A stretch of 64,000 nucleotides of DNA, taken from positions 644,739 through 708,738 of the forward strand of contig NZ_CP016463.1 of the NCBI RefSeq assembly GCF_001713455.1, written 5' to 3'. A program made the position numbers and the translations under genes. The stretch is from Bosea sp. RAC05. Lineage in GTDB: Bacteria; Pseudomonadota; Alphaproteobacteria; Rhizobiales; Beijerinckiaceae. Below are positions 21,164 to 56,403 of the stretch, piece by piece (the stretch's first letter is position 1; every line of letters begins with the position of its first letter). A model generated the notes under the pieces. The model did not search any database. It had not been told where the DNA came from and saw only the letters and a program-made list of their open reading frames with translations.

Positions 21164-22819
<1,656 letters not shown>

Positions 22820-37232: not shown

Positions 37233-40200
37233 ATGTTTCGGCGAATTGTCAGTGTCGTTCTTGCAGCCGCAATTGCGCTGGAGCCGGTGGCGGCTGCCGC
37301 GCAGCAGATGCCGTACTATCGGCATAACCGCACGACCTACGCCGGGCCCGTCACGCCTCCGACCCCGACGAACCCCACCAATACGGATCCTGTCCGCGGC
37401 ACAGGTGAGCTGGCGATCTATCTGCCGGTGCAGGTTCGAGCGCGCTACGGCGTGCCCTTCTCGCTGCAGCTGCGCGCTCAGAATGGCGAGGGCGACGTCA
37501 CCTGGACTAGCGTCGGAACGGCGCTTCCAGAGGGTCTGACATTCAATCCGTCGACAGGCTTTCTGACCGGCGTTCCCACCCGCATTCAGACCTCTCCGAA
37601 GGCAAGGTTTGCGGGCGTCGACGCGACGGGCAAGACCGGAGAGAGCCCGTCTCTTATCATTGATGTCCAGCCTGTTCCGTCCGTTGCGGTCGAGGCGGTC
37701 TATACGGGGCAAACCGGCACCGATCTCGCGATCCGGCCGGTGGCTTCGCCAGTCTTCGGTTCGCAGGCCTGGACCCTCGCCGGTAATCTGCCGCTTGGAC
37801 TGAGCCTCGATCCGAACACAGGGCGGATTACCGGCACTCCGCGCCAGCAGGGCACCTATGCGAACCTGAAGCTGTCAGTGACCGATGCTGACGGTGCTTC
37901 TGGCACATCCGCGGCGTTCACCATCAACGTCACGTCGAACATCGCGATCACCGGGCTGCCCTCCAAGATTCCGGCGCGTCTGGCGAGAGCCATGACCCCT
38001 GTTCGCGTCTTCGCAAGCGGGACGCCGGGCCCCTATCAGTGGTCGGTCTCGGCGGAGGGCGCCTCTCTCCCCGAGGGTCTCGCTCTCAATCCGACAACGG
38101 GTGCGATTTCCGGCACACCGGTCGCCAGCGGGTCGACGTCAGGCGTCGCCCTTCGCATCGTGGACACACGGACGGGCGAGAGCACGATCTCTCCGCCCTT
38201 CACCGTTGCGGTGGCAGATGCGCCGTCGATTTCGGTCGCGGCAAGCTACACGGTCCGTCAGGGGCGAGGCAGCGTCGTCAATCTGGTCCCGGTCGGAAAC
38301 AATCTGCTGGCCGGCGGCTATTGGTCGACGACATCCAAGCCGCCCGGGTATGGGTTCGAGTATTCGACCGGGGCGATCACAGGGCCAACTGGATCCATCG
38401 CCAGCTACGCCGGCATCACCTTCAAGGTCATCGACATGTTCGATGGCGCCTCGGCCACTTCCAGCGCCACGACGCTCAATATCTGGCCGGAGCTGACAGT
38501 GGGTGGGCCTGCAATCCCCGCAGCCAAGGTCGACACCCCATTCTCGATGCAGCCGCCGGTGGCGTCCGGGCTGATGGGTGTGCCGACTTGGTCGGTTATT
38601 GGTGCGCTTCCCGAAGGACTGACCCTCAACCCAGCGACCGGGGTGATTACCGGCACTCCCACGAAGGTCAGTCGCCTTCGGGTTTCAATGTCGCTCGTCG
38701 ACGGCGCCGACAAGGCGACAGCTTCGACCATCCCCTTCGACATCAACATCCAGCCCGAGGATGCCGAACTTCCATTCGAGATCGTCGGCGTGCCTGCCCA
38801 GATCCCGGGCGTAACCGAGCGCTTCATGTCGTTCACGCCGACGGTAACCGGTGCGAAGGGTGCCGTCACATGGAGCCTGGTCGGTACACTCCCGAGCTGG
38901 GCGCTGTTTGAGCCTTCGACGGGTTCCATCGCGGGCGTACCCACGACAACTGGTGTCACGTCTGGGCTTGTCCTGTCCGTGTCCGACGCATCCACTGGCG
39001 CTACGGTGTCATCCAGCCCCTTCGCGTTGGAGATCACGCCAAATGCGCCAATGACAGTGGCGATCGCGGAGAGCATGCAGGGTGAGGTCGCCGAGACCTT
39101 CGCTGGTGCGAGCCCCGTAGTCCGGAACAGCCGTGGCACAACAAGTTTTGCGCTTGCTGCAGGGCACGCCCCCGAAGGCTTGCAGCTGAACCCGGAGACA
39201 GGCTCGTTCCAGGGCATCCCGGAGATCTCGGGAACGGTTTCAGGCCTCTCCATTCTCGCCACCGACAATTTCGGCAGCGCCGCGGTTTCAAATCCGTTCG
39301 CCGTCAATGTGGCTCCGTCGGCGACAAGCCCGGTCGCGACAATGGCCTCGAGGACCGCGACGACGCATGAGCCGTTTTCAGCCGCGCCTTCGGCCAGGAA
39401 CGCCTTCGCACCGCTTACTTGGGTACTCGAAAGCGGATCCCTGCCATCCTGGGCTACGTTCAACCCGACGACCGGGGCCATCAGTGGAACGCCTCCGCAG
39501 ACGGGATTGAGCGGCCCATTCGTGCTCAAGGTCACGGACCGGTTCGGACGCGCCGCCAGGACGTCAGAATTTTCGATCTCGACGGTGGATGCTCCGGCCT
39601 TCTCGATCTCGATGGCTCCGACCGTTTACGGGGTGGCCGGAAGCACGTTCATCGAAAGACCGATCGTCATCGGTGCCAAAGGCGCGACCACCTTCACGCT
39701 GACGGCAGGGACGCTGCCCGCTGGATTGATCCTCAGCCCGGACACTGGTGCGATCAATGGTTCGCCCAATGCCTCAGGGCTCACGAATGGTCTGAGGATT
39801 TCGGCGAGGGACACGACCAACGCTGTCGTCTCGACCGATGCCTTCAGCATTTCGGTCTCGCCCTCGCCCCTCAAGGTCTCGGAATACCCAAGCGAGCTGC
39901 GCTCGACGTATCAGGTCGCCTACATCGCGCCCCGGCCTCAGGTTTCGGGAATCGTTGGTTCCGCGGTCTGGACACTTGCGAACGGCACGCTTCCGTCCTG
40001 GGCCACGCTCGATAGCGAGACTGGCCAGATCAGCGGAACGCCGGATGCTGTTGCGACCGCCTCGGGCCTGCGCTTGCGCGTGGCCGACAGCAACGGGACG
40101 AACGCGACGACCGGTTTCTTCTCGCTGATTGCGGCGCGCCCGACATTGTCAGCCGGCTCTCATGGAGCATTGGCCTATCATACCGGCGAACCGACCACGA

Positions 40201-43200
40201 TCCCGGCCCCGGCCGCGAGAGGCGTGGTCGGGGCCCCGACATGGACATTGACGTCTGGCACGCTGCCGGTTGGCCTGGCCCTCGATCCTTCGACGGGTGT
40301 GATCAGCGGCGCTGTCGCTTCACCGTTGACGGCCAGCAATCTCATCCTGACGGTTCGCGATGCTTTCGACGGTGCGACCGCTTCGACACCCGCCTTCAGC
40401 ATCGCCATGCTGGGCGCGCCGGTGGTGACCGTTCTTCCCACCTATCAGGGGTCGCGGGGTGCATCATTCGAGGCATTGCCCGCGGTCACCAATGCAATCG
40501 GTGCACAGGCCTGGACGCTGGTGTCCGGTAGCCTGCCGGCCTGGGCGACATTCGACGCCACCACCGGTCGGATTGGAGGCACGCCACAGGAAGTGTCCAG
40601 CGCGACGGGGCTGATCGTGCGGATGACCGACGCCACCGGCGCCGTGGCGCAGTCGGAGCCGTTTTCGATTGTCGTCGGCGCCGGCATGTATGCGACGACG
40701 CAGAGCACGACCTACAATCCTCGCGTCGGGATCGCGTTTGCGACTGACGCCCCGCAGGTCTTCAAGAATGCGGGTGCGGTGACCTGGAGCATCGCATCCG
40801 GGTCGCTTCCCGCATGGGCCACGCTCAATGTCGCGACCGGCATCATCTCCGGCACGGCGGACGCCCCATCCAAGTTCACGATCGTCCTTCGGCTGACCGA
40901 TGCGTCGTCGGCTTCGGCAACCACACAGCCACTCACCTTCGATGCGACGGGTGTCCCCGTTGTCAGCATCGCCTCGAAGTCCCTGCGTGTCGGCGCGCCG
41001 CTCACCTTGGCGCCGGTGGTGACGGGGGCTGTCGGCGAGCAGTTCTGGCAGGTGGTATCGGGTACGCTGCCAGCCTGGATGAAGTTGGACGCCAGGACAG
41101 GTCTCCTGACCGGTTCTCCGACCGAGATCGGCAGCGTCACCCTCGCCCTGCAGGTGCGGGATGAGGATGGCGCCGTCGGGACCAGCGCCGCTTTCACGAT
41201 CACGGTGACACCCGGTCTGACGATCGCCGGCAAAGCGCCGAGCTATGGCGGCCGCATCAATCAGCTGTTCTCGATGGCGCCCGTCACGATCGGAAACGCC
41301 CAGGGAGCCCTGTCCTGGACCATGGCCATCGGGTCCGGCATGCCTGGCGGGCTGATCTACAACGAGTCCAACGGTACGCTGAGCGGAAGGCCGACCAACT
41401 CGGGCACCATGACGGCAAACCTGGTCGTGAGGGATGCGTCTGATCAGGCGACACTGAACGTTTCGCTCAACCTGGTCATCGCTCAGGAACTCACGATCTC
41501 CGAGCCGGTCACGGCGTCCTTCCATGAAGGACAGGCCTTCGCGACGAGGGCCCTGGCTGTCACAGGCCAGCGCGGGACGCTCAGCTGGAAGCTTGTCGGC
41601 GGCACCCTGCCGGCCTGGGCTACCTTCGCAACCGAAACCGGCATCATCTCTGGCACAGCACCGAACGCGATCACGTCCGTCGGGCCGCTTGTCATCACCG
41701 TCACCGACAGTGAAGACCAGATCACGTCGCCTTCGGTGTCCTTCTCGATCGAAATCATCCCAGGGCTCGGCGTGGCCAACCTGCCGACGAGCTTCTCAGC
41801 TCGCTTCGGCACCCTCTTCACCAGCGCCAGACCAACAGCGGTGAGCCCTGTCGGGGCGCCGGTGTGGTCATGGGGCCAGGGGTCTGCCCCGCCGGCATGG
41901 CTGAATCTAGATCCTGCGACCGGCATCCTCTCAGGCACGCCCGTCGCCTTGGGTTCGTTCTCCGGCCTCACCCTCGTCGTCAAGGACGCGACCAATCAGA
42001 TCGCATCGTCCGCGCCATTCACGCTCAGTGTCTTCAGCCAGCCGTCGATCGCAGTGTCCGAATCGACGCTCAAGCGGCGCGTTGGAGACATGGTCTCGAT
42101 CACGTCGACAGCAACTGGCCTGTCGGGCACGCCTCGCTGGTCGGTCGTCCTTCAGCCCGGCAGCGATCCGATCCCGGCCGGTCTCGTCTTCAATGAGCAG
42201 ACCGGCAGTCTGAGCGGGACGCCGACCGCAGCTGGATCGGCATTCTTCCTGATCCGGGTCGTCGATGGCCAAGACCTGGCGATGGCCGAATCGCAGATGA
42301 TCTCCTTGACGGTCTCGCCGGCCTTCTCGCTCACCGGGATGGCGAGCTCGTATTTCGGGCGCGTCGGCGAATTCCTGATCCTTGATCAGCCCACCGCCCA
42401 GGGGCAGGCCGGGCAAGGCGTGGCCTATTCGTTCACGCTTCGCGAAGGCGTTCTTCCGGCTGGATTCGGCATGGTCGACAACACGACCGGCTTGATCCGC
42501 GGCGTTCCATCGCTGCCGCTTCAGACGACCATCGGAACGCTGTCTGCGACGGACAGCTTCGACCAGAAGACGGCCGCGACATCGTTCACCATCGGGATCC
42601 GGCCGGCGCTGTCCGTGGCGGGTGTCACCGATGTCGCCTTGCGCAACGACCAGGCGGTCGGAACGTCCACGTTCACACCGGCAGCCCAGAACCTGTTCTA
42701 TCCCGGAACGGCGCAGTGGACGTTGTCGGGCACTCTGCCCAACGGTGTCACGTTCAACTCGTCCAATGGCACGCTCTCGGGAACACCGACAGGGTATGCC
42801 GCATCGCAGACCTTCGCCGGGCTGACGCTCACCCTGAAAGATCCCACCGATGGATCCCAGGTGACGTCGGCGCCCTTCAAGGTGACGGTCAACACCGGGA
42901 TTTCGATCCAGACGACGCAGCCCAGCTACACGGTCCGAGCAGGCCGGCAGTTCGTCGCGGCCGCTCCGACCATCAGCGGGCTGAGCGGAACCGGAACGTG
43001 GTCTATCGTAACGCGAGCCGGTACCGCCCTGCCCTACACGATCGCAGCCAATGGCGCGGTCACGGTGAGCCCAAGCGCAGCGGCTAATGGTGGCTGGGCT
43101 TACGATCTGATCGTGACGGACCCGGTCGACGGAAACACCAGTGCCGTCACCATCACGGCTACCGTCGCGCCAGTGACCGTTCTGGCCTATCAGGGAAACA

Positions 43201-43901
43201 CGGCCGTTGCGCCCGGCCAGCAGGTGTCGATCCCGGCCAGTGTCTCCAACAATCGCGGGGCGCTCCAGTTCTCGCTGGCTTCGGGCGCACTTCCGGCCGG
43301 CATCACACTCGACGGAACGACCGGACTGATCTCGGGATCGAGCTCGGCGCTCGGCTCGGTGACAGTGACCGTCAAGGCCATCGACATCGACGGTTACGAA
43401 GCGGTTTCAGGTGCCGTGCGCATCGCAGTTTCGAACGCGCCTGACGTCTTTGTGGGCGGCATTCCGTCCGGGAAGATCGGGAAGCCCTTCGTTCTCGCTC
43501 CTACGACCAATGCCGCATCCGTGACATGGTCGATGACCGGAACGCTTCCGGCGGGACTGAGCTTCAATTCTGCGACCGGAGCGATTACCGGGCAGCCGAC
43601 GGCTGTTGGCACGTCCGGATCCATCGTTATCAGCGCGCGGAATACCGCAACCTCGGTGACGGGGCATCCGAGTCCTTCACGATCACGGTGGTACCCGGCA
43701 ACGCGATCTCGGTCGCTAGCGAGGCTGCAAAATGGCGCCAGGGACTGGCCGCGTCGACCAAGCTGTCGATTGCCAACGCAGTGGGTGCTGTCAGCTGGAC
43801 GATCACGGGTGGCGTGCTGCCGGCCGGCGTCTCGCTTAACAGCCAGACAGGCGAGATTTCCGGCCTGCCGACCCAATTCGGGCCCCATAGCGTCAGCCTG
43901 A
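37233..43901 (+). CDS. Giant exported He_PIG repeat protein, N-terminal part (frameshifted)
   Basis: Signal peptide MFRRIVSVVLAAAIALEPVA followed by QQMPYYRHN and 23 tandem putative-Ig domains of about 85-90 aa, for example WTLTSGTLPVGLALDPSTGV followed by ISG. A Pro/Thr linker at about residues 37-55 follows the signal. The reading frame is sound up to SARNTATSVTG at the G4 run 43661-43664; beyond it, the last 79 codons are Arg/Pro/Ser-rich and not repeat-like. Adding one G there continues the repeat (SVTGASESFTITVV) into the 43526-48709 frame. Together they would form one protein of about 3825 aa with some 39 repeats. Likely an adhesin-like surface or envelope protein. Either a true frameshift, programmed -1 slippage on GGGG, or an assembly error. 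Confidence 0.88.
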   Translation: MFRRIVSVVLAAAIALEPVAAAAQQMPYYRHNRTTYAGPVTPPTPTNPTNTDPVRGTGELAIYLPVQVRARYGVPFSLQLRAQNGEGDVTWTSVGTALPEGLTFNPSTGFLTGVPTRIQTSPKARFAGVDATGKTGESPSLIIDVQPVPSVAVEAVYTGQTGTDLAIRPVASPVFGSQAWTLAGNLPLGLSLDPNTGRITGTPRQQGTYANLKLSVTDADGASGTSAAFTINVTSNIAITGLPSKIPARLARAMTPVRVFASGTPGPYQWSVSAEGASLPEGLALNPTTGAISGTPVASGSTSGVALRIVDTRTGESTISPPFTVAVADAPSISVAASYTVRQGRGSVVNLVPVGNNLLAGGYWSTTSKPPGYGFEYSTGAITGPTGSIASYAGITFKVIDMFDGASATSSATTLNIWPELTVGGPAIPAAKVDTPFSMQPPVASGLMGVPTWSVIGALPEGLTLNPATGVITGTPTKVSRLRVSMSLVDGADKATASTIPFDINIQPEDAELPFEIVGVPAQIPGVTERFMSFTPTVTGAKGAVTWSLVGTLPSWALFEPSTGSIAGVPTTTGVTSGLVLSVSDASTGATVSSSPFALEITPNAPMTVAIAESMQGEVAETFAGASPVVRNSRGTTSFALAAGHAPEGLQLNPETGSFQGIPEISGTVSGLSILATDNFGSAAVSNPFAVNVAPSATSPVATMASRTATTHEPFSAAPSARNAFAPLTWVLESGSLPSWATFNPTTGAISGTPPQTGLSGPFVLKVTDRFGRAARTSEFSISTVDAPAFSISMAPTVYGVAGSTFIERPIVIGAKGATTFTLTAGTLPAGLILSPDTGAINGSPNASGLTNGLRISARDTTNAVVSTDAFSISVSPSPLKVSEYPSELRSTYQVAYIAPRPQVSGIVGSAVWTLANGTLPSWATLDSETGQISGTPDAVATASGLRLRVADSNGTNATTGFFSLIAARPTLSAGSHGALAYHTGEPTTIPAPAARGVVGAPTWTLTSGTLPVGLALDPSTGVISGAVASPLTASNLILTVRDAFDGATASTPAFSIAMLGAPVVTVLPTYQGSRGASFEALPAVTNAIGAQAWTLVSGSLPAWATFDATTGRIGGTPQEVSSATGLIVRMTDATGAVAQSEPFSIVVGAGMYATTQSTTYNPRVGIAFATDAPQVFKNAGAVTWSIASGSLPAWATLNVATGIISGTADAPSKFTIVLRLTDASSASATTQPLTFDATGVPVVSIASKSLRVGAPLTLAPVVTGAVGEQFWQVVSGTLPAWMKLDARTGLLTGSPTEIGSVTLALQVRDEDGAVGTSAAFTITVTPGLTIAGKAPSYGGRINQLFSMAPVTIGNAQGALSWTMAIGSGMPGGLIYNESNGTLSGRPTNSGTMTANLVVRDASDQATLNVSLNLVIAQELTISEPVTASFHEGQAFATRALAVTGQRGTLSWKLVGGTLPAWATFATETGIISGTAPNAITSVGPLVITVTDSEDQITSPSVSFSIEIIPGLGVANLPTSFSARFGTLFTSARPTAVSPVGAPVWSWGQGSAPPAWLNLDPATGILSGTPVALGSFSGLTLVVKDATNQIASSAPFTLSVFSQPSIAVSESTLKRRVGDMVSITSTATGLSGTPRWSVVLQPGSDPIPAGLVFNEQTGSLSGTPTAAGSAFFLIRVVDGQDLAMAESQMISLTVSPAFSLTGMASSYFGRVGEFLILDQPTAQGQAGQGVAYSFTLREGVLPAGFGMVDNTTGLIRGVPSLPLQTTIGTLSATDSFDQKTAATSFTIGIRPALSVAGVTDVALRNDQAVGTSTFTPAAQNLFYPGTAQWTLSGTLPNGVTFNSSNGTLSGTPTGYAASQTFAGLTLTLKDPTDGSQVTSAPFKVTVNTGISIQTTQPSYTVRAGRQFVAAAPTISGLSGTGTWSIVTRAGTALPYTIAANGAVTVSPSAAANGGWAYDLIVTDPVDGNTSAVTITATVAPVTVLAYQGNTAVAPGQQVSIPASVSNNRGALQFSLASGALPAGITLDGTTGLISGSSSALGSVTVTVKAIDIDGYEAVSGAVRIAVSNAPDVFVGGIPSGKIGKPFVLAPTTNAASVTWSMTGTLPAGLSFNSATGAITGQPTAVGTSGSIVISARNTATSVTGHPSPSRSRWYPATRSRSLARLQNGARDWPRRPSCRLPTQWVLSAGRSRVACCRPASRLTARQARFPACRPNSGPIASA

Positions 43902-46900
43902 GAACGGTCGACGCTGAAGGAGCTGTCGCGACCTATTCCTACAGCCTGAACACTGCGGTTGGCCCGACGGTCAATTACGGTACGGTGAGCATGCGTCCGG
44001 GCGTGACGGCATCAGTCACTCCCATTGCGCAGAACCTGGCAGGAACGGCGACCTTCGAGATCCGCTCGGGCTCTCTTCCCACGGGCCTGGCCTTCAACAC
44101 ATCCACGGGCTCGATCTCCGGCACGCCCGAGCAGGCGACATCTTCTCCGGTCGCGCTGCGTGTCCGCATTACGGACGCCGACGGAGCATTCGGCGAGACC
44201 TCGTTCTCGCTGGTCGTGAGCGCCAATGCATTCGTCGTCGACGCCGGTGGTTCGTCGTTTGCGGCCACAGTCGGGCAGCCGTTCTCGCTGCAGCCGGTTG
44301 CCTACCTGCAGACTCAGGCGGTCAATCAGTATGTCGTCTGGGCGGTTCAGGGGAAACTGCCGGTCGGATTGAAGTTCGACACCATCACGGGACGGATCAC
44401 AGGAACGCCGGCACCAGACACGGCCGGGACCACGACCTTCAGCATCTCGGCGACCTACAATTCTCAGTCATCGAGCACGTCCAACCTGACGCTTGTGGTC
44501 ACAGATCGAGTTGCGCCGACTGCCTCTTTCGGCGCGGCCACCTACAGCGCGCGCCGGGGTGAAGCGTTCTCCATCCAGCCGACGTCGCAGAACACGGTCG
44601 GCACGACCATCTGGTATCTCGCATCGGGAACGCTGCCGACCGGCATGTCGCTCAACGAGCAGACGGGCGTCTTGTCTGGAGCGCCGTCGAGGAATGGCCC
44701 GTTCACCTTCGCGCTGAAGGTGGCGGACGTCAGCAAGATCGCCACGACGCAAAGCGTCACTGTCACGGTTCAGGACGGGATGTCGGTCGCCTTCACGGAG
44801 GTGACCTCCAACACGCGCGTGGGCAAGATCTATCTCGCCAATGCCACCGTGACAGGCGCCAGCGGCGCCGTGACCTGGAGCGTCACGCAAGGCACCCTGC
44901 CGACGGGTCTCTCAATCAACCCGCTCAACGGCACGATCGCCGGGGCCCCAGCTCAGACTGGCACCTGGAAGATGACGGTGCGGGCGCTCGATGAGACAGG
45001 CGCTTCGAAAGAGGTTCCTGTATCGATCGCCGTCGGATCGGGACCAAGCGTGGGCGTGATCTCGCAGCAGACAGCCCTCGTCGGGGCCGCCTACTCCCTC
45101 ACACCTTCATCGTCATCGACGGTGCCAACCCTTCAGTGGGCGGTGGAAGGAACACTGCCTGCTGGGCTCGCGCTCTCCAATCCGTCGACCGGAGCTATCA
45201 CGGGTACGCCGACGACGGCGGGCACTTCCAACGATCTCAGGTTGGTCTTGACCGACGGCGATGGTCTCGTCGCCAAATCGGCTGTCTTCTCGATCACCGT
45301 CGCGCCGGCATCGGCCGCCCTGACCGCGACGATGCCTCCGACCGTCAACTTTGTGCAGGGTCAGTCGGGATCGGTCTCGGCGACGGTCGCAGGCGCGATC
45401 GGTCCGACGCAGTCCTATGCAATCCAGCTCCACGGCTACAACCCGAACCGGGGGGGATACTTCTGGAACGATCTGACCCAGGCCGGCGCTCCGCTGCTGC
45501 CGGCCGGCTTGTCGTTCAACACATCGACTGGCGTCCTCTCCGGCACGCCGACGACCACACTGCAGGCTGCTTCGGCCTATCGGATCGTCGTGACGGATAA
45601 TCGCTCGCCTGCTGTTGCGGTGACCTCCAATCAGTTCGTCATCGCGATCGCGCCTTGGCAGCCGATCGTGGTGAACGTCTCGCCGAACTATGCGCTGACC
45701 CGCGGTCAGGAGTTCAGCATTGCGCCGGCAGTGTCCGGCAATGTTGGAACGACGTCCTACACGCTGCAGGTTTACGCCTGGAACTCCGCCAACCAGGTGT
45801 CTCGATGGAATGACCTGGGAACCAACGGAACGCCGTCACTCGTCAGCGGGATGAGTTTTTCGACGACGACAGGTGTGCTGTCGGGAACCATTTCGGTTGC
45901 CAATCCGACTTCGTCAGGCATCATCAGCTATCGCATCGTTGCGCGAGATGGTCGCAACGAGATCGGGACTTCGAGGCAGTTTACCCTGGCCCTTGCCGAT
46001 TGGGCCCAGCCCACGGTCACCGTACCGCGCGCACAGCAGCTGACCAGGGGCCAGCCCATCGAGATCGTTCCGACGGTGACAAACGTCATCGGCTCGAAGT
46101 CGTTCGTGCTCCAGATTTACGGCTACAACCAGAACTCGGGATCCTATTTCTGGAATATGGCCGGTCAGACTGGAGCTCCGACCTTGCCGGTCGGACTGTC
46201 GTTTGACGCAACCACGGGCACGATCTCGGGAACTCCAACGACAGCGACAGGAAACTCGAACGCAAGCGCCTACCGGGTCGTGATGAACGAAATCCGGGAC
46301 GGCCAGACGATCAGTGTCCAGTCCAATCAGATGGTCTTCACCTACGCTGACTGGGTGCTTCCCGCGATCTCGATCGATCAGACCGTCTCCGTCACGCGTG
46401 GTTCGCCCGCTGCGATCACGCCGACTGTCACGGGCGTTTCGGGGACAGTGACCTATGTGCTCGACGTCTACGGCTACAATAGTGCGAACGGCACGAATGC
46501 ATGGAGCCGTATCGGTCAGAACGGTGCTCCAACACTGCCGGACGGACTGACTTTCAACAGCAGCACGGGTGCGATCACCGGAGTGCCGAACGGCAGCTTT
46601 AGCGCTTACGCTCAAGCATTTCGCATCAGTGGAACCGAGACGCGGTCGGGGCAGTCGAACACCTTCAGCTCCAACAGCTTCACGATCGCGGTCAGCGATT
46701 GGCCAGCGCCGACATTGGTCTATCCCAACCGCACGCTCTTCGTGGTGAACCAGCCGCTCGTGGTGCAGCCTGAGATCACAGGCCTCGTCGGGACTGCTCA
46801 GTATGTGCTCATGGTCTATGGGTATAATTCGGGCAATGGCACGAACCAGTGGATGAACCTGAACCAGTCGGGTGCGCCAACGGTTCATCCAGGGCTTTCG

Positions 46901-48709
46901 TTCAACTCATCGACGGGTGTCATTTCTGGAACGCCGACAGCCCTGTCGACCAATCCTCCCGGTGCCTATCGGGTGACCATGACCGAAACCAGGGTCATCA
47001 ATGGCACCAACCAGACGCGGACCGTGACATCCAAGCAGTTCACGCTGGCAGGTTCGGCAGCGGCCTCGACAGCGCCTGCACTGGCTTATGGGGTGAATGG
47101 AACGATCGCAGGGACGGTCAATGGCGCTCTCGACGCTGGGCCCACGTTGACCAACGCGACGGCTGTGTCTGGCCCCTACTCCGTGCAGACATCCACGACG
47201 ACCACGGTCAATCAAACGGGAGATTACACGGCCACAACGCTTCCAAGCGGCGTCTCATTCAACACCTCGACGGGGCGTTTCACAGCCACGTCTATCGCAC
47301 CCGCGGCTGTCGGTAACTGGCGCGGTTACAGGGTGTGCGCGCCGACCGCGTCGGGAACGGCTTGCACGCCCGAAATCGTGTTTGCGATCGCGGATCGTCC
47401 AGCGGTGACGATGCAGCTGCCGACCTATGTCGATGCCTTGCTGCGCGAATCCGTCTCGGTGACGCCGGTCATCCAGAATGCTGTCGGGGCGGTGACCTTC
47501 ACCCTGGCCTTCAACAGCATTCCGGCCGCGGCCGCCGCCAACGGCGAGGTGATCCAGGGCACGCTGCCATCGGGCCTTGCTTTCGACGCCGCCACCGGCA
47601 CGATTTCGGGTGCGCCCACCGTGTCGGGTGTCTTCCGCGGCTACAAGATCACCGCGAGAGACAGCCAGGGCACCTCCTACGCAGCCACTAGCGGTGAGAT
47701 CATCTTCAGGATTGCTCCTGCAGCAGCCTTCACGGTGTCGGTGCCTGCTGCGACACAATGGCAGCAGGGCGCTGCTGTGGCCATTCAGCCAACGGCCGTA
47801 AATGCCTACGGGACCGTGACCTGGAACGCCAACCTCACCCAGAACATGGGAGGGGTCGCAGACGGAGTGACCACCTTCATCGGCGCGCTCCCCACGGGGC
47901 TGAGCTATACCGCTGCAACCGGTTCGATCTCGGGTACGGTGGCCTACTCTGTCGCGCCAGGGACCTATCGTGGCTATCAGATCTGCGGAAGGGACGAGTC
48001 GAGCCGCAATGCCTGCTCGCCTGAGTTCGCCATCCTGATCAAGGCCAGGCCGGCCCTGACCATCAGCGCGCCCGCAATCGTCTATGCGAGACCGGGCGAA
48101 GCTGTGACCGTGAACCCGGTGGTCGCCAACGCGATCGGCGCCATGACCTGGGCGGCCAACCTGACCTTCAACGCCAGCACTGCGCAGAGCTCGCCGGGTG
48201 AGACGCAGACCTCGTCTCTGCCAAACGGTCTCAGCTATTCGAGTACCACAGGCGTAATCTCCGGGACCTTGGCGGCGAATGTCGCAACGGGTCGCTGGCG
48301 AGGCTACAAGGTCGCCGGCCGTGATACGGCCACCGCGAGCAATGTGACCTCGGACGAGATTATCTTCGAGATCAGCCCGGCCGATCCGCTCGTCATATCG
48401 CAGCCGCTGATGCTCGATCTCGTCCGCGGTCAGCCATTCACGCTGACACCAAGGGTCAGCGGCGCAATGGGCTCGCTGACATGGGACACGAACCTCACGA
48501 CCCGGTCTACCAGCGCGATCGACGGATCAAATGGGGATATCGTGCAGAGCGCTCTGCCCGGCGGCCTCATCTATGCCGCTTCGGGGGGTGTGATTTCCGG
48601 GACTGTGAGCGCAACAGCGACGGTTGGACGGTGGCGCGGCTACAAGGTCTGCGCGAGCGACGCTCGCGGCAGGGTCTGCAGCGATGAGTTCACCTTGAAC
48701 GTGCGCTGA
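43526..48709 (+). CDS. Giant exported He_PIG repeat protein, C-terminal part (frameshifted)
   Basis: The true continuation of the 37233 gene in another frame; residues before GASESFTITVV (about 43660) are out-of-frame noise, and no signal peptide occurs here, so this is not an independent gene. It contains six more ordinary repeats, then five longer repeats (about 110-120 aa) with GYN/YAWN and two-line insertions (for example SFVLQIYGYNQNSGSYFWN), then five of a third type ending in RGYK (for example GRWRGYKVCASDARGR). It ends in a plain repeat (DEFTLNVR) without Cys-rich cap, anchor or T1SS signal. A hairpin follows at 48715. Confidence 0.85.
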   Translation: MVDDRNASGGTELQFCDRSDYRAADGCWHVRIHRYQRAEYRNLGDGASESFTITVVPGNAISVASEAAKWRQGLAASTKLSIANAVGAVSWTITGGVLPAGVSLNSQTGEISGLPTQFGPHSVSLRTVDAEGAVATYSYSLNTAVGPTVNYGTVSMRPGVTASVTPIAQNLAGTATFEIRSGSLPTGLAFNTSTGSISGTPEQATSSPVALRVRITDADGAFGETSFSLVVSANAFVVDAGGSSFAATVGQPFSLQPVAYLQTQAVNQYVVWAVQGKLPVGLKFDTITGRITGTPAPDTAGTTTFSISATYNSQSSSTSNLTLVVTDRVAPTASFGAATYSARRGEAFSIQPTSQNTVGTTIWYLASGTLPTGMSLNEQTGVLSGAPSRNGPFTFALKVADVSKIATTQSVTVTVQDGMSVAFTEVTSNTRVGKIYLANATVTGASGAVTWSVTQGTLPTGLSINPLNGTIAGAPAQTGTWKMTVRALDETGASKEVPVSIAVGSGPSVGVISQQTALVGAAYSLTPSSSSTVPTLQWAVEGTLPAGLALSNPSTGAITGTPTTAGTSNDLRLVLTDGDGLVAKSAVFSITVAPASAALTATMPPTVNFVQGQSGSVSATVAGAIGPTQSYAIQLHGYNPNRGGYFWNDLTQAGAPLLPAGLSFNTSTGVLSGTPTTTLQAASAYRIVVTDNRSPAVAVTSNQFVIAIAPWQPIVVNVSPNYALTRGQEFSIAPAVSGNVGTTSYTLQVYAWNSANQVSRWNDLGTNGTPSLVSGMSFSTTTGVLSGTISVANPTSSGIISYRIVARDGRNEIGTSRQFTLALADWAQPTVTVPRAQQLTRGQPIEIVPTVTNVIGSKSFVLQIYGYNQNSGSYFWNMAGQTGAPTLPVGLSFDATTGTISGTPTTATGNSNASAYRVVMNEIRDGQTISVQSNQMVFTYADWVLPAISIDQTVSVTRGSPAAITPTVTGVSGTVTYVLDVYGYNSANGTNAWSRIGQNGAPTLPDGLTFNSSTGAITGVPNGSFSAYAQAFRISGTETRSGQSNTFSSNSFTIAVSDWPAPTLVYPNRTLFVVNQPLVVQPEITGLVGTAQYVLMVYGYNSGNGTNQWMNLNQSGAPTVHPGLSFNSSTGVISGTPTALSTNPPGAYRVTMTETRVINGTNQTRTVTSKQFTLAGSAAASTAPALAYGVNGTIAGTVNGALDAGPTLTNATAVSGPYSVQTSTTTTVNQTGDYTATTLPSGVSFNTSTGRFTATSIAPAAVGNWRGYRVCAPTASGTACTPEIVFAIADRPAVTMQLPTYVDALLRESVSVTPVIQNAVGAVTFTLAFNSIPAAAAANGEVIQGTLPSGLAFDAATGTISGAPTVSGVFRGYKITARDSQGTSYAATSGEIIFRIAPAAAFTVSVPAATQWQQGAAVAIQPTAVNAYGTVTWNANLTQNMGGVADGVTTFIGALPTGLSYTAATGSISGTVAYSVAPGTYRGYQICGRDESSRNACSPEFAILIKARPALTISAPAIVYARPGEAVTVNPVVANAIGAMTWAANLTFNASTAQSSPGETQTSSLPNGLSYSSTTGVISGTLAANVATGRWRGYKVAGRDTATASNVTSDEIIFEISPADPLVISQPLMLDLVRGQPFTLTPRVSGAMGSLTWDTNLTTRSTSAIDGSNGDIVQSALPGGLIYAASGGVISGTVSATATVGRWRGYKVCASDARGRVCSDEFTLNVR
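43661..43664 (+). other. Frameshift point in the giant repeat gene
   Basis: The run GGGG in GTGACGGGGCATCC. In the first frame the codons are ACG GGG CAT; slipping back one base, or adding one G, gives ACG GGG GCA TCC (T-G-A-S), which restores the repeat. The repeats on each side fit only across such a shift. Confidence 0.85.
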
Positions 48710-51180: not shown

Positions 51181-52875
51181 TCAGTTGCCGCGATAACGCT
51201 GCTCACGCCACGGATCCCCGTAGTTATGGTAGCCTCGCGTCTCCCAATAGCCGGGCTCATCGTCCGAGCTGAAACGGATGGCTTTGAGCCATTTGGCGCT
51301 CTTCCAGAAATACAGGTGCGGGATGACGAGGCGCAGCGGGGCGCCGTGCACGCGGGTCAGGGGGCGGCCCTCCCAGCTATGGGCGAGCAGGCAGCCAGCC
51401 CTGGTGAAGTCATCGAGAGGCAGGTTGGTCGTGTAGCCGTCGCAGGAGATCAGCTGGACGTATCTGACCGATTGACCAGGACGGATGAGCGCGATGAGGT
51501 CGGCGGTCGAAATGCCTTCCCACGCGTTGTCATATCTCGACCACGATGTGACGCAGTGAATGTCCGAGACGCTTGATGTCTGAGGCAGGTCGAGGATCTC
51601 CTGCCAGGTGAAAGATTGCGGAGCTTCGACATCGCCGGAGACCTCGAGGCGCCAGGTGTTCATGTCGATGTAGGGCTTGGGCCCAAGGTCGAGCACAGGC
51701 CACGATTCAGTCAGGTGCTGTCCGGGCGGCAATCGCTCCGTGGACGGGTCAGAGCGTCGGCCGGTCAAGAACCGCCCCTCCTCCGCCCAGCGCAGTTTCG
51801 TTTCAGCGAGCTTGGAACTCTGGATATCGCTGGCTTCCGGTCCGCGGGCATCCACCCTCGCCACCTCTGCGGGCTTCGACCGCCAGGCCTTGAACCGGTC
51901 AACTGCGATCCGGACCATGTCGCCGATCGAGGGCCACGGCTTCGAGATTGGCTGTGACCACTCACGCTGAAACAGGCGCTGCTGCTCATCGATGTCATCG
52001 ATGCGCTTGAGCATCGCCTCATCCACACCGCGTGCAATCCGGTCGAAGGCGATGGTCTCCTCGGGATCCCAGACCGGGATAGAAGCAAGATAGGAGGCCG
52101 GGTCGACGACGGGCTTGATCGACGTCTGGGACTGCAGGGCCGTCTCGCGGACGGCCGGCGGTACCTTCGCCAGTGCTTGCTCGGCGAGCCCGTCGGGAAT
52201 CCCGAACATAGCTTCCGCGATCGCGCCCGCGATGGCCGCCTGGGTATCGGCATCGCCGCCGATGGACACAGCGTTTCTGATGGCGTCCTCGAACGATGAA
52301 GCCTCCAGGGCGCAGATCAATGCTTCAGGAACGCTGATCCAGGACTTGAGCTCGAAAATGCAGGTTGATCGAACCTGGTCGACGCTGCGGCTGAGATCGT
52401 AACCGGACTTCTCCGTGACGATCGCCCTGATCTGCGAACTCGAATATCCCGCCCTGGCGAGGTAGATCGCAAGCGTCGTCGCCTGGGCGCCCCGGACGCC
52501 TTCTGGATGATTGTGGGTTGGCAGTGCCGACAGCCGGGCAAGCTCCAAAGCGTGATGCAGATCACGCGCGAGCCAAGCCGCCGGCGACACTCGCATCGAG
52601 GCGCCGTTGCCCCAGGAGCCATAGGCCGGAAGAAGCTCCGGGCTGGATGCCCAGCTCCAGAAGCCGGGTCCGTAGCTCGTCACGTACTCGTTGGCGTACT
52701 CCTTCAGCCTCGCGGCAAGATCGACGCCATCGATAATGGCGGCAGCGACCGCGACAGTCAGGATCGTGTCGTCGGTGTAGATGCTGCCCTCGTCGAAGAG
52801 GTCGAACTCCTTCGACTTGATCGGGGCAAACTCACGCGAGCTGCCGACCACATCGCCGATTATCGCGCCGAGCAT
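51181..52875 (-). CDS. ADP-ribosylglycohydrolase fused to a sulfite-oxidase-type molybdopterin domain
   Basis: One uninterrupted 564-aa ORF. Residues 1-240: ADP-ribosylglycohydrolase (DraG/ARH) fold, with GAIIGDVVGSSREF, metal ligands in YTDDTILTVAVA, HNHPEGVRGAQATTLAIYLA and IGGDADTQAAIAGAIAEA. Residues about 240-385 are a linker that I cannot assign. Residues 385-564: a sulfite-oxidase-family molybdopterin domain with molybdenum-ligand Cys441 (SDIHCVTSWSRYDNAW) and the RVHGAPLRLVIPHLYFWKSA block. Both active-site sets look complete. Its start overlaps the ISL3-like gene by 16 bp, so it is translationally coupled. No Moco chaperone or heme domain is nearby. The combination is unusual to my knowledge. 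Confidence 0.88.
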   Translation of the reverse strand: MLGAIIGDVVGSSREFAPIKSKEFDLFDEGSIYTDDTILTVAVAAAIIDGVDLAARLKEYANEYVTSYGPGFWSWASSPELLPAYGSWGNGASMRVSPAAWLARDLHHALELARLSALPTHNHPEGVRGAQATTLAIYLARAGYSSSQIRAIVTEKSGYDLSRSVDQVRSTCIFELKSWISVPEALICALEASSFEDAIRNAVSIGGDADTQAAIAGAIAEAMFGIPDGLAEQALAKVPPAVRETALQSQTSIKPVVDPASYLASIPVWDPEETIAFDRIARGVDEAMLKRIDDIDEQQRLFQREWSQPISKPWPSIGDMVRIAVDRFKAWRSKPAEVARVDARGPEASDIQSSKLAETKLRWAEEGRFLTGRRSDPSTERLPPGQHLTESWPVLDLGPKPYIDMNTWRLEVSGDVEAPQSFTWQEILDLPQTSSVSDIHCVTSWSRYDNAWEGISTADLIALIRPGQSVRYVQLISCDGYTTNLPLDDFTRAGCLLAHSWEGRPLTRVHGAPLRLVIPHLYFWKSAKWLKAIRFSSDDEPGYWETRGYHNYGDPWREQRYRGN

Positions 52876-54032
52876 GAGCCAATCCTTCCTGCGTTCTCAT
52901 CTCTGGCCATGAACGAGGCCACCGTCTGGACGGCGTCTTCGAGAAGACGCTTGCCAACAGGGCGATCAAAGGAATCCATCGAAAGGGTGAGCCCCGGTGC
53001 CGGTTCAGTGGCCGGGGTTTCGATCAAAAGGATAGCTCTGAGCACAGAACCGGCGGCGCGCGGCCGCGCCGACAGAATGGCGTCCTTCAGCCTCGTCATC
53101 ACGCGCCACGGTTCGTCCACCCAGCGCAAGGCCAAGCCCGCCTCGATGACATCTCGCCAGGCCACCAGGAAGCGCTGCAGCCCTGCCCCGGCCGAGCCGT
53201 TGTTGAGAGTGGTTTCGGCCAGCCGGAACAGCGCATTCCGCTCTGCCCCGGCGTCGAGCTTGAGTGCGTCGAGCAGCATGTTCTTGGCTGACAGCAGCGC
53301 CTGCAGAGCGTTCGGCCACGCCCAGATCGCCTCGGTATCATCCGCTGACAGAACATTCGCATCCGTGTCGAAGAGGTCCGGGTCGATGCGCGAGTTTGCT
53401 CCCGCAGCAATCGCCGCGGTGCGTGCCGCCATGAAGCTCTTCGCCGCCACCTGGCGAACCGCCCTGCGAGCCTCTGAGACGGCCATCGCCGGCACCGCCG
53501 CTCCGAAAGCCTCGCGAACCTCGATCAGAGACCGGCCGTCGAACTCAACGAAGACGTGCGTCGCGGAGCCCTCCGCTTTCGAGGCCCACTCTTTCAGGGT
53601 AGCCCGGTCTTCGAGAACCTCGACCAACGAGCCATCATCAGCGTCAGCGAGCATGATCCGCTGTCGGCCGGCCGTCGAAAAGCCGAGGGCGAGAGTGATG
53701 TCGGCAAGCCGGTGCTCTGTTTCGCAGTGGATATCGACCCACCGCGAGAGAGCCTTGTCGACCGTCTTCTCGGGGCAGGAGAGAGCCGCAGCAGCTCCGT
53801 CGATGCCCCGGGAAATGGCCAGATGAGAGATGTGTTCAAGCGCCTCATGTTCGATCTGAGGAGGAGGATCCGCATGAACGTGGCCACAGATGCAGCGCCA
53901 GCGCTGCACGTCGACCTTACGCCTAACGGCTCTCTCGCCCTCAATCCCCAGACACACGCGAGGGCGTTTGCCGTATGAGACCGAGGACAAGCTGGCGCAT
54001 CGAGGGCATTCCTTGGGGAGGAACTGGCGCAT
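52860..54032 (-). CDS. ISL3-transposase-like protein, probably domesticated
   Basis: A 390-aa protein with an ISL3-like layout: N-terminal zinc ribbon (CPRC at about 11-14 and the second pair CICGH), a helix-turn-helix-like region (ISRGIDGAAAALSCPEKTVD), then a DDE-like part (RQRIMLADADDGSLVEVLED). The catalytic positions look altered: where ISL3 enzymes have D-RFH this reads SEARRAV. There are no terminal repeats, and it lies inside an operon, two bases after the DotM-like stop and overlapping the fusion gene. So a mobile enzyme is unlikely; a DNA-binding accessory protein is more likely (inference). ATG at 54032; a TTG six bases up is in frame. Confidence 0.65.
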   Translation of the reverse strand: MRQFLPKECPRCASLSSVSYGKRPRVCLGIEGERAVRRKVDVQRWRCICGHVHADPPPQIEHEALEHISHLAISRGIDGAAAALSCPEKTVDKALSRWVDIHCETEHRLADITLALGFSTAGRQRIMLADADDGSLVEVLEDRATLKEWASKAEGSATHVFVEFDGRSLIEVREAFGAAVPAMAVSEARRAVRQVAAKSFMAARTAAIAAGANSRIDPDLFDTDANVLSADDTEAIWAWPNALQALLSAKNMLLDALKLDAGAERNALFRLAETTLNNGSAGAGLQRFLVAWRDVIEAGLALRWVDEPWRVMTRLKDAILSARPRAAGSVLRAILLIETPATEPAPGLTLSMDSFDRPVGKRLLEDAVQTVASFMARDENAGRIGSCSAR

Positions 54033-54034
54033 AA

Positions 54035-54892
54035 TCAACCGTCATCCAGATTGGTCGACTGAGAGGCCGGTCGGGAATGTGTGCTGACTTCCTCATTCTC
54101 GATGTGGATGGAGACGGCAGAAATCGCGCCCAGGACTGCGAGCTCTACCTCTGGGGTGCGGATAGCTTTGCCTGCTGCCCGCTCCGCCATATAGTGTGCA
54201 ATCGGGCCCGCACCTTCGGCGAAATAGACCCGTCTGCCGACGTTCGTGATGGCGTACCAGAGGCCGCGGTCAACGGCCTTGAGCCACCTGAGGTCGCAGC
54301 TCGCAAGCCCGCTTCCGACAAAGGCAGCAATCAGTCTGGTCACGTCGCTTCCGTGGAAAACCTCCAGGTCGCCGTAGAGACTGGTCGTCGTCGTGGGGCA
54401 GAATTCGTATTTGAAGTATGTGAGGCCGGGCATGTAGACTTTGTCCATGCCGTCGCTCGGCGTCGTGTAGACCCCTTTCAAACAATCCAGAGCGGCGAGA
54501 TTGCCCGTCTTTGCCCAGTGGAAGGCAATCATCAAACTCTCGTACAGAGCAGGCGAAACGGGACGCCTGACCTGTGCCGAAAAGGCATTCCGCAGGATCA
54601 TCTCATTGCGCAGGTCGCCGGCCCCCGAGCTCCCGTGACGATCCAGGAATTCGGAGACGTTCAGGTGGATGTCGGGCTTAACCGCACCCGACTGAACCAC
54701 TGCCTTTGAGTGCTCATAATCCCCGTTGCCGGCCACGGCCGCGGCTGCGATCCCAAGGCCCCCGACGACCAATGCAGTGGACCAATTATCCGAGCTGATG
54801 AACTGAGACAGGATCAGGTGGACGGCTGGAGTAGCGATCAAGCCGCCAACAAAGCCGGCGAGTATCTGCTTGGGATAGATCTGAATTTCCAT
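54035..54892 (-). CDS. DotM/IcmP-like type IV coupling-complex protein
   Basis: A 285-aa inner-membrane protein with two N-terminal hydrophobic segments (KQILAGFVGGLIATPAVHLI and STALVVGGLGIAAAAVAG), then a cytosolic domain resembling DotM/IcmP (and TrbA of IncI plasmids): FHWAKTGNLAALDCL, then CDLRWLKAVDRGLWYAITNV, GRRVYFAEGAGPIAHYMAE. DotM sits with DotL in the coupling complex and helps recognise substrates. Starts 11 bp after the DotL-like stop. The rest of a Dot/Icm or MPF-I apparatus is not in the window. The C-terminus is Ser/Asn-rich. Confidence 0.78.
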   Translation of the reverse strand: MEIQIYPKQILAGFVGGLIATPAVHLILSQFISSDNWSTALVVGGLGIAAAAVAGNGDYEHSKAVVQSGAVKPDIHLNVSEFLDRHGSSGAGDLRNEMILRNAFSAQVRRPVSPALYESLMIAFHWAKTGNLAALDCLKGVYTTPSDGMDKVYMPGLTYFKYEFCPTTTTSLYGDLEVFHGSDVTRLIAAFVGSGLASCDLRWLKAVDRGLWYAITNVGRRVYFAEGAGPIAHYMAERAAGKAIRTPEVELAVLGAISAVSIHIENEEVSTHSRPASQSTNLDDG

Positions 54893-54903
54893 GACGATTT
54901 CTT

Positions 54904-56403
54904 TCAGATCTTCGCGGGCGTGATGGAAGATGCGGGGGCCGGGAATGCAAGTCCAATTTCGAGCGAATGGCCGCTCAAATCGACCTTTGGAATGGACGGG
55001 AAAAGAGATGAGAGTGGCTGGCTGCTCGATCCATGCCTCTGCAGAGACGCGACGCCTGAGCCATGGAACGTCATGCGGGTACCGACCTGAGCCAGGAAGG
55101 TGTCGCTTTCCCGGCCGCGCGCAGCGGCTTCATGAGAGTAAGCAGCGATGATCGCCAGATTGGGGATGCGCGCGCCATTTGAGAATCCCTTCATCGGGTT
55201 GGAGACACCCTCAAGGAACAGATAGAATGGCGTGGTCTGCTGAAGTGTCTTCTGCTGATTAGGCCCGACCTGCAAAGCAATTGCGTTTCTGGCGCAGGAG
55301 ATGACGATCGAAGCCAGTTTGCCGCAATCCTCTGAGACCTTCTCCAGGCAGGGAAGAAGAACGATCAAAATGCGCTTGTTCTTGATGACGTCGCGCATGT
55401 CGATGTCATTCTCGTTGTCGAGAAAAATGTGACCGTAGACGTCGGCCAGCGAGCCCATGATCCTGGTGAACTGCATCTCCAGGTAACCGTGCTGGTCGAG
55501 CGTGGTCTGGGCCTGCTTGTAATCCTTCTCCTCGACATAGCCGGGCAGCGAGGTCAGGTAGCTCTGCAGCGACTTGCGGATGTGCGCCGGGAGGTCAGGG
55601 TTCTTCTTGAGGTTGGTGAGGTCGATGATGCGCTTCAGATTGAGATAGTCGCGGATGGTGCCGACGTTGAGGTCGACCACGTTCTGGTCGCGCAGATAGG
55701 TCAGGGCGCGCATCACACCGGAGATCATCGCAACCGCTCGGCCCTTCCACATGCCACCATCGCCGACGTCATCCATCAGCGAGACGATCATTTGGGTGAG
55801 GGCATCGGAAGCTCCGATACCGAAAGGATTCAAGCTGTTGGAGATAAACTTGCCTTCGGTCCAGGATAGATCCCGGTTACCAGTCATGAAGTTGAGCACG
55901 AGGAAATCGTCCTCGCGACCAGCACTGACGGCGCTGGCATAGAGCTTTGCGTACTGAGAGACATCTCCAGTCCCGTCGACATAGATCACACCTCCACCTG
56001 CAGCGATGGCTTCATGGGCCATTCCGAGCATTTGCTCGCGCTTGCCGTCTGCAGTGCTACCGATGATGGCGATATGCTCTGTGGCCTGCTGGCGACCCAT
56101 GCGGATTGGCATCGAAGAAACCCGATCGTGGCCCAGAACCAAGCCGTGAGGATCGTTCGGTGCGGCCGCCGAGCTATGGCTCTTGAGCTTCGAAAAGAAT
56201 GCGATCAGGCCGTTTGAAGTCGAGAAACCCGGCTTTCCAACGACGTGGAGGCTCAAGGCGGTAGCTCCGAGGATTGCGGTCCAGAGAGCGATCTGCGGGA
56301 ACAGGAGGGTGATGACCGCAAGCCCGGTCAATGTGGCGATGGTCGACTGGCGGCTCTTCATCAGCGCGAAGGCGGCCTCGATTGCCTGGTTGAGAATGGT
56401 CAT
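54904..56403 (-). CDS. DotL/IcmO-like coupling protein with altered Walker motifs
   Basis: A 499-aa protein with two N-terminal TM segments (about 23-53), then a DotL/TrbC-type (VirD4 superfamily) domain: EHIAIIGSTADGKREQMLGM, GGGVIYVDGTGDVSQYAKLY, SNSLNPFGIGASDALTQMI, GGMWKGRAVAMISGVMRAL, YGHIFLDNENDIDMRDVI and NKRILIVLLPCLEKVSEDCG. Walker A reads GSTADGKR (115-122), lacking the final Thr/Ser; the Walker B region reads YLFLEGV (394-400) instead of hhhhDE. So ATP hydrolysis may be lost. It lacks the long C-terminal tail of DotL. Start 56403 has GGAAGGACATC. It heads a five-gene operon with the DotM-like gene next. Confidence 0.8.
   Translation of the reverse strand: MTILNQAIEAAFALMKSRQSTIATLTGLAVITLLFPQIALWTAILGATALSLHVVGKPGFSTSNGLIAFFSKLKSHSSAAAPNDPHGLVLGHDRVSSMPIRMGRQQATEHIAIIGSTADGKREQMLGMAHEAIAAGGGVIYVDGTGDVSQYAKLYASAVSAGREDDFLVLNFMTGNRDLSWTEGKFISNSLNPFGIGASDALTQMIVSLMDDVGDGGMWKGRAVAMISGVMRALTYLRDQNVVDLNVGTIRDYLNLKRIIDLTNLKKNPDLPAHIRKSLQSYLTSLPGYVEEKDYKQAQTTLDQHGYLEMQFTRIMGSLADVYGHIFLDNENDIDMRDVIKNKRILIVLLPCLEKVSEDCGKLASIVISCARNAIALQVGPNQQKTLQQTTPFYLFLEGVSNPMKGFSNGARIPNLAIIAAYSHEAAARGRESDTFLAQVGTRMTFHGSGVASLQRHGSSSQPLSSLFPSIPKVDLSGHSLEIGLAFPAPASSITPAKI

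What the first reader, a model, noticed from the sequence alone, without database searches (positions are those of the whole stretch)
51181..52875. ADP-ribosylglycohydrolase and sulfite-oxidase molybdopterin domain in one protein
A single open frame joins a complete-looking DraG/ARH domain to a complete-looking small sulfite-oxidase-type domain (Cys441), with a 145-aa unassigned linker. These families handle unrelated chemistry (removing ADP-ribose; Moco redox). The gene is translationally coupled within a DotL/DotM-like operon. It may reverse an ADP-ribose mark and sense or do redox chemistry on the same partner. To my knowledge such a fusion is not standard.
Basis: partly seen in the sequence, partly recalled or inferred. 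Interest (0 to 1): 0.7.

Follow-up and report, generated by a model that had tools for sequence, protein, structure and literature searches.

The report
Rare ADP-ribosyl hydrolase–molybdenum enzyme fusion
One bacterial protein joins a complete ADP-ribose-removing enzyme to a complete small molybdenum redox enzyme; the joint is real and is found in four related proteins too, but what the two halves do together is not known.

Summary
The fusion is real. Minus-strand ORF 52875-51181 (564 aa) carries PF03747 (residues 1-226, E 1.5e-30) and PF00174 (399-544, E 3.8e-38) in one frame. It is not a local frame error: four further protein clusters have the same architecture, 63-66% identical over the full length. 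Both halves of the five proteins form one clade with the same branching order, which points to one fusion event. Catalytic residues are kept in both halves. Most of the "145-aa linker" is the DraG tail plus the N-terminus of the stand-alone Mo enzyme. The architecture is rare: it was seen only in this genome in samples of the genus, family, order, class and phylum. Best reading: a bifunctional enzyme, an ARH/DraG-fold ADP-ribosyl hydrolase tethered to a YuiH-type Mo oxidoreductase. Activity of either half, and any coupling between them, is untested; the model is weak at the loop just after the Mo-ligand cysteine.

The parts
51181..52875 (-). whole fusion gene, 564 aa
   Evidence: RBS-like AGGAAGGA 7 nt before the ATG (read from the sequence printed)
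52105..52875 (-). residues 1-257: ADP-ribosylglycohydrolase (ARH/DraG) domain; metal-site residues T34 D35 D36 and D208 D210 T211
51874..52104 (-). residues 258-334: C-terminal tail of the ARH/DraG part, two predicted helices (271-307, 317-333)
   Evidence: 46 of 111 DraG relatives align past residue 270, 65 do not; helices in the model
51805..51873 (-). residues 335-357: low-confidence tether; 301-351 is the least conserved stretch among the fusions (mean identity 29%)
   Evidence: pLDDT under 50; regional identities
51184..51822 (-). residues 352-564: complete YuiH-type sulfite-oxidase-like Mo domain (PF00174 at 399-544)
51553..51555 (-). Cys441 codon, expected Mo ligand
   Evidence: C in 31 of 31 rows; ligand role inferred from the family; residues 442-444 have pLDDT under 50
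51442..51444 (-). Cys478 codon, a cysteine found in the fused proteins only
   Evidence: 5 of 5 fusions, 0 of 95 stand-alone relatives
52860..54032 (-). upstream gene, about 390 aa, cysteine pairs at the N-terminus (zinc-ribbon-like by eye), no family; overlaps the fusion gene by 16 nt
   Evidence: no Pfam match; 2 hits in the protein set, one of them itself; 1 of 67 genus genomes; ATG start read (ORF listing gave a TTG at 54038)
54035..54892 (-). DotM/IcmP-like protein, 285 aa
   Evidence: PF23127 DotM_C, E 6.3e-21
54904..56403 (-). DotL/VirD4-like ATPase, 499 aa (name inferred)
   Evidence: no Pfam hit; 64% identity over residues 89-376 to a larger frame on the same contig; weak HerA model match, E 0.0018

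Best explanation
It is one bifunctional enzyme. The N-terminal half is a two-metal ADP-ribosyl hydrolase of the ARH/DraG fold that removes ADP-ribose from a protein or a small molecule. The C-terminal half is a full-length YuiH-type molybdenum-cofactor oxidoreductase, with Cys441 as Mo ligand and with neither a haem domain nor a dimerisation domain found by Pfam, probably acting on a sulfur oxyanion or an oxidised sulfur compound. The halves fold separately and are held by a short flexible tether (pLDDT under 50 at 335-357), so they work as tethered neighbours, not as one active site. Shown: the frame, the domains, conserved catalytic residues, a joint kept in five proteins whose halves share one history, the two predicted folds. 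Inferred: that both halves are active, that the protein is cytosolic (the chain starts with the ARH domain; no signal-peptide tool was run), the flexibility of the tether, the substrates, and any coupling.
Against: No activity has been measured for either half. Seven Mo-domain positions set all five fusions apart from the 95 stand-alone proteins (S378, E390, K400, Y402, C478, A512, E540), two of them beside conserved motifs: C478 before DGYTTN and A512 where 94 of 95 have G. The branch leading to the fused Mo domains is long (0.54 against 0.28 for the hydrolase half), so the chemistry may have changed or been lost; 1xdq has A at the 512 position, so A alone does not exclude cofactor binding. 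The model is weak just after Cys441 (442-444 under 50) and over about 331-400, so the Mo site is not confirmed by structure. Only five clusters are known, and the contigs of the other four (longest 3,210 to 64,855 bases) could not be read.
Confidence: 0.6

Rival explanations
1. The hydrolase is the working half and the Mo domain is a sensor or a binding module (for cofactor, sulfite or an oxidant) that controls it or brings it to a partner.
For: The Mo domain changed more before the five split than the hydrolase (branch 0.54 against 0.28) and has a cysteine found in 0 of 95 stand-alone relatives. A 'Pterin Binding Protein' (7kos) is among the PDB sequence matches (E 0.00083).
Against: Of the positions that are at least 95% one letter in the stand-alone set, one search lists six where the five fusions do not all agree with it, and only one (512) is changed in all five; Cys441 and its motif are kept. 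The tether is predicted with low confidence and so probably flexible, which does not favour direct control.
Confidence: 0.2
2. Fortuitous joining of two unrelated enzymes; both work, with no functional link.
For: No DraG gene in the held flanks of 80 stand-alone Mo loci; the own genome carries both families apart; sporadic distribution.
Against: The joint has been kept while the window protein and the other four diverged to 63-66% identity, with the domain order and the catalytic residues kept and the length within 562-567 aa.
Confidence: 0.17
3. Artefact: a lost stop codon or a frameshift joined two genes in this assembly only.
For: None found.
Against: Four further full-length proteins; the genome search reads the same frame without stops.
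Confidence: 0.01

Closest known systems
ARH3 / DraG family ADP-ribosyl hydrolases (PF03747)
   Different: Carries a C-terminal Mo enzyme. It scores far below the NCBIfam cut-offs for nitrogenase DraG (40 against 337.05 bits) and Tri1 (33.8 against 490).
YuiH-type 'sulfite oxidase-like oxidoreductase' (PF00174 only; the name YuiH is recalled, the product name is as annotated)
   Same: Whole length; 46-63% identity (best segment) in the 80 genome loci listed, which are mostly Alphaproteobacteria by their titles; motifs.
   Different: Fused to a hydrolase; seven positions, among them Cys478 and Ala512, set the fused group apart.
Bacterial MsrP/YedY (1xdq), sulfite dehydrogenase, SoxCD, sulfite oxidase, assimilatory nitrate reductase
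   Different: NCBIfam equivalog cut-offs missed (MsrP 68.3 against 207 bits, SoxC 32.2 against 420, SorA 28.5 against 600, SorT 25.8 against 570); Pfam shows no second domain after PF00174.
ARG-centred operons proposed to counter viral ADP-ribosylation (PMC9503650; find passages and section 3.8 read)
   Same: An ARG domain with no ADP-ribosyltransferase among the 20 window genes scanned with Pfam.
   Different: The section names phosphatases, Nudix or WYL regulators, chaperones and ARPP as partners; no Pfam match to a phosphatase, Nudix or WYL domain in the three neighbours of the run; chaperone types and ARPP were not tested. A Sir2 gene lies about 44 kb away. The word molybdopterin does not occur in the paper's main text.

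Membership tests
ADP-ribosylglycohydrolase family (PF03747) | Pfam match over the gathering score | tested here: met
   107.3 bits against 26.2
ADP-ribosylglycohydrolase family (PF03747) | two-metal site residues (TDD ... DxDT) | tested here: met
   T34 D35 D36 in 46 of 47 rows, one gap; D208 D210 T211 in 47 of 47
ADP-ribosylglycohydrolase family (PF03747) | hydrolysis of an ADP-ribosyl bond | not testable with these tools
   needs protein
Nitrogenase-specific DraG (TIGR02662) | curated equivalog cut-off | tested here: not met
   40 against 337.05 bits
Nitrogenase-specific DraG (TIGR02662) | partner transferase DraT in the genome | tested here: inconclusive
   no match, but none of the 14 control genomes rang either
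Oxidoreductase molybdopterin-binding domain (PF00174) | Pfam match over the gathering score | tested here: met
   131.2 bits against 24
Oxidoreductase molybdopterin-binding domain (PF00174) | Mo-ligand cysteine | tested here: met
   Cys441, C in 31 of 31 rows; ligand role from the family
Oxidoreductase molybdopterin-binding domain (PF00174) | bound molybdenum cofactor | not testable with these tools
   needs protein; MoaC present in the genome
YuiH-type stand-alone enzymes | whole-length similarity including the N-terminal stretch before PF00174 | tested here: met
   local matches begin at residue 281-355 and end at 561-564 in 80 of 80 loci; the 95 of 95 lean on pieces cut at residue 346 and are not independent
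MsrP (NF003767) | curated equivalog cut-off | tested here: not met
   68.3 against 207 bits
Known anti-phage defence families (PADLOC-DB 2.0.0) | model match | tested here: not met
   0 families for the fusion at E up to 0.01

The most novel reading that the evidence does not exclude
A redox-coupled eraser: the Mo domain (with the fusion-specific Cys478) senses or produces a sulfur redox state and thereby gates, or acts on the same partner as, the removal of ADP-ribose by the other half; this would tie molybdenum-dependent redox chemistry to ADP-ribose signalling, possibly in a setting connected with a DotL/DotM-like transfer system.
Probability: 0.15. Interest if true: 0.75.

Novelty: new variant of a known kind. 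Interest (0 to 1): 0.42.

Why it matters
Fusions kept by evolution often mark working partners (general knowledge). I found no paper that settles the substrate of the YuiH-type Mo enzymes, and the target of this ARH/DraG-fold half is unknown; a kept fusion of the two gives one protein in which a link between molybdenum redox chemistry and ADP-ribose removal can be tested directly.

Tried and rejected
Frameshift or assembly artefact: rejected by four further full-length proteins. A genuine unknown 145-aa domain between the two: rejected, the stretch is tail, short tether and the N-terminus of the Mo protein. Origin by joining the resident copies: the own stand-alone Mo protein groups with a Bosea protein (L064; 100/98), not with the fusions, and the own stand-alone DraG lies outside the fusion group on a long branch, whose place is unsure. 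A DraG-YuiH gene pair as a forerunner of the fusion: none in the held flanks of 80 loci. A known defence gene: no PADLOC match for the fusion. Relation of the upstream gene to the protein behind another DotL-like gene on the same contig (L120): only a weak N-terminal likeness, BLASTP E 0.36 and hhalign probability 0.44%, so not claimed. DraT in the genome: no match but no control rang, so nothing is concluded. DotM distribution in the genus was not obtained. The upstream gene has no match in the plasmid collection; 25 kb around the fusion have no plasmid record with 80% cover, only short pieces in 14 records.

Literature: 'ADP-ribosylglycohydrolase' + 'sulfite oxidase' + 'fusion' gave 0 papers; 'ADP-ribosylhydrolase' + 'bacterial' + 'domain architecture' + 'molybdopterin' gave 0; 'ADP-ribosylglycohydrolase' + 'fused' + 'bacteria' + 'DraG' gave 4, of which I saw the listing and, for PMC9503650, passages and section 3.8. 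'YuiH' + 'molybdopterin' gave 1 (listing only); 'sulfite oxidase-like oxidoreductase' gave 1 (PMC7661421, one passage read); one search gave 10 (listing only, apart from passages of PMC3511301); one search gave 1, one search gave 2 (listing only). The library is open-licence papers only, so absence there is not absence in print.

The surroundings of the four further proteins could not be read: no metagenome scans were allowed. Rows dropped: from the DraG tree P0006, P0007, P0008, P0042 and P0098 (over 550 aa, several with repeated domains) and from the Mo tree P0029 (repeated domain). Alignment A2 (73 rows) holds the 5 fusions, 42 one-domain DraG proteins, P0037 and 25 of the 80 Mo loci; several rows have short stray stretches outside their domain.

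Full report
What is there. The ORF at 51181-52875 is on the minus strand and encodes 564 aa without a break. Pfam finds ADP_ribosyl_GH at residues 1-226 (E 1.5e-30) and Oxidored_molyb at 399-544 (E 3.8e-38), both far over the curated cut-offs. NCBIfam equivalogs (MsrP, nitrogenase DraG, Tri1, SoxC, SorA, SorT) are matched only far below their cut-offs, so each half belongs to the broad family but meets none of these named models.

Is it real. A search of about 5.8 billion clustered proteins found four further clusters with the same two domains in the same order, 562-567 aa, 63-66% identical over 100% of the query (domains checked). They stand for 16 member sequences; their sources are ena, lgn and jgi and no organism is named. 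A second search with the alignment of all five showed no further one among the 120 listed of 422; scores fall from 1162 to 419 bits after the fourth. In trees of the two halves the five fusions form one group each time (112 rows, support 100/99; 35 rows, 100/100) with the same inner order, the window protein outside and (P0002,P0004) beside (P0003,P0005); one inner DraG fork has weak SH-aLRT support (99/53). The simplest reading is one fusion event, inherited as a unit.

How rare. With the five-protein alignment only the window's own genome had the fusion among 67 genomes of the genus, 248 of the family, 397 of the order, 385 of the class and 398 of the phylum. These samples overlap and each count includes the own genome; the last four are draws from larger groups. 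Among 638 matching plasmid records none had one place covering 80% of the query. The 10 viral relatives match the DraG half only, in a scan with two DraG patterns.

Active sites. T34, D35, D36 are kept in 46 of 47 rows (one gap) and D208, D210, T211 in 47 of 47; D438, H440, C441, R447, D449 and N450 in 31 of 31. Y549 aligns to chain position 322 of 1sox by equal-length ranges, which I recall as the active-site tyrosine of chicken sulfite oxidase. Seven positions set the fused Mo domains apart from 95 stand-alone ones; the most telling are Cys478 (5 of 5 against 0 of 95) and Ala512 (5 of 5, where 94 of 95 have Gly). MoaC is in the genome.

Surroundings. The window is bases 644739-708738 of contig C1, which is 708,738 bases long; the second contig has 4,911,382. 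Two genomes of the same genus have contigs of the same length as named Bosea records (G202:C7 and NZ_SLZF01000007.1, 440,259; G225:C20 and NZ_LGSZ01000035.1, 67,397), so the genus is very probably Bosea. Upstream of the fusion, on the same strand, lie a gene of about 390 aa without a family, overlapping the fusion by 16 nt, a DotM_C protein, and a DotL-like ATPase with a larger relative on the same contig. The 390-aa gene is found in 1 of 67 genus genomes and has one other relative, 82% identical, on a contig of 30,270 bases; since no fusion above 66% identity was found in the same protein set, that relative may lack the fusion, but its contig was not read. A Bosea plasmid, pANAM02, has genes annotated as DotD/TraH, a T2SS/T4P/T4SS ATPase and IcmT/TraK near a DotM match (41.7% identity over 33% of the query), yet PLSDB types that plasmid as non-mobilizable. 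A transfer setting for the window's genes is therefore a guess, and I did not search the own contig for the other transfer genes.

Leads on function. A paper on Sinorhizobium meliloti states, as data not shown, that SMb20584, listed among further sulfite-oxidising enzymes, is up-regulated with taurine (PMC3511301, passages read). The YuiH-type gene of an S. meliloti pSymB lies next to pobA; that it is SMb20584 is my inference from recalled gene order. A Gordonia transcriptome names a 'sulfite oxidase-like oxidoreductase' as higher with three organic sulfur substrates than with sulfate (PMC7661421, one passage read); its relation to the present domain was not tested. A review of ADP-ribose systems (PMC9503650, passages and section 3.8 read) describes ARG-centred operons with phosphatases, chaperones and Nudix or WYL regulators; Pfam shows no phosphatase, Nudix or WYL match in the neighbours here.

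Judgement. The most likely reading is a tethered bifunctional enzyme with two working halves (0.6). A non-catalytic or sensing Mo half (0.2) and a joint without functional meaning (0.17) remain open. The finding is a new domain combination, well supported as a fact and unexplained as a function.

Noticed in passing
window 52860-54032: Orphan gene with N-terminal cysteine pairs between the DotM-like gene and the fusion; one relative besides itself among the 7995 candidates scored.
   Followed up: partly
L120 8018-10707 (G000:C1 about 170,017-172,706): A second DotL-like ATPase gene followed at once by a 367-aa protein with N-terminal cysteine pairs, an arrangement like the one upstream of the fusion; the likeness of the two cysteine-pair proteins is not significant.
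   Followed up: partly
window 37233-48709: Two very large frames (2222 aa; 1727 aa) that overlap by 376 bases in different frames; the second has 16 putative Ig (He_PIG) stretches.
   Followed up: no
window 21188-22819: A CTP synthase gene (543 aa, both domains) on the 709-kb contig, which suggests that it may carry core genes.
   Followed up: no
window 6168-6953: A Sir2-family gene (PF02146, E 1.4e-35) on the same contig, about 44 kb from the fusion.
   Followed up: no
window 32453-33964 and 36216-37091: A HerA-like ATPase (best PADLOC match E 3.8e-17) and an ATPase with partial matches to 95 defence-system ATPase models (best E 1.6e-15).
   Followed up: no
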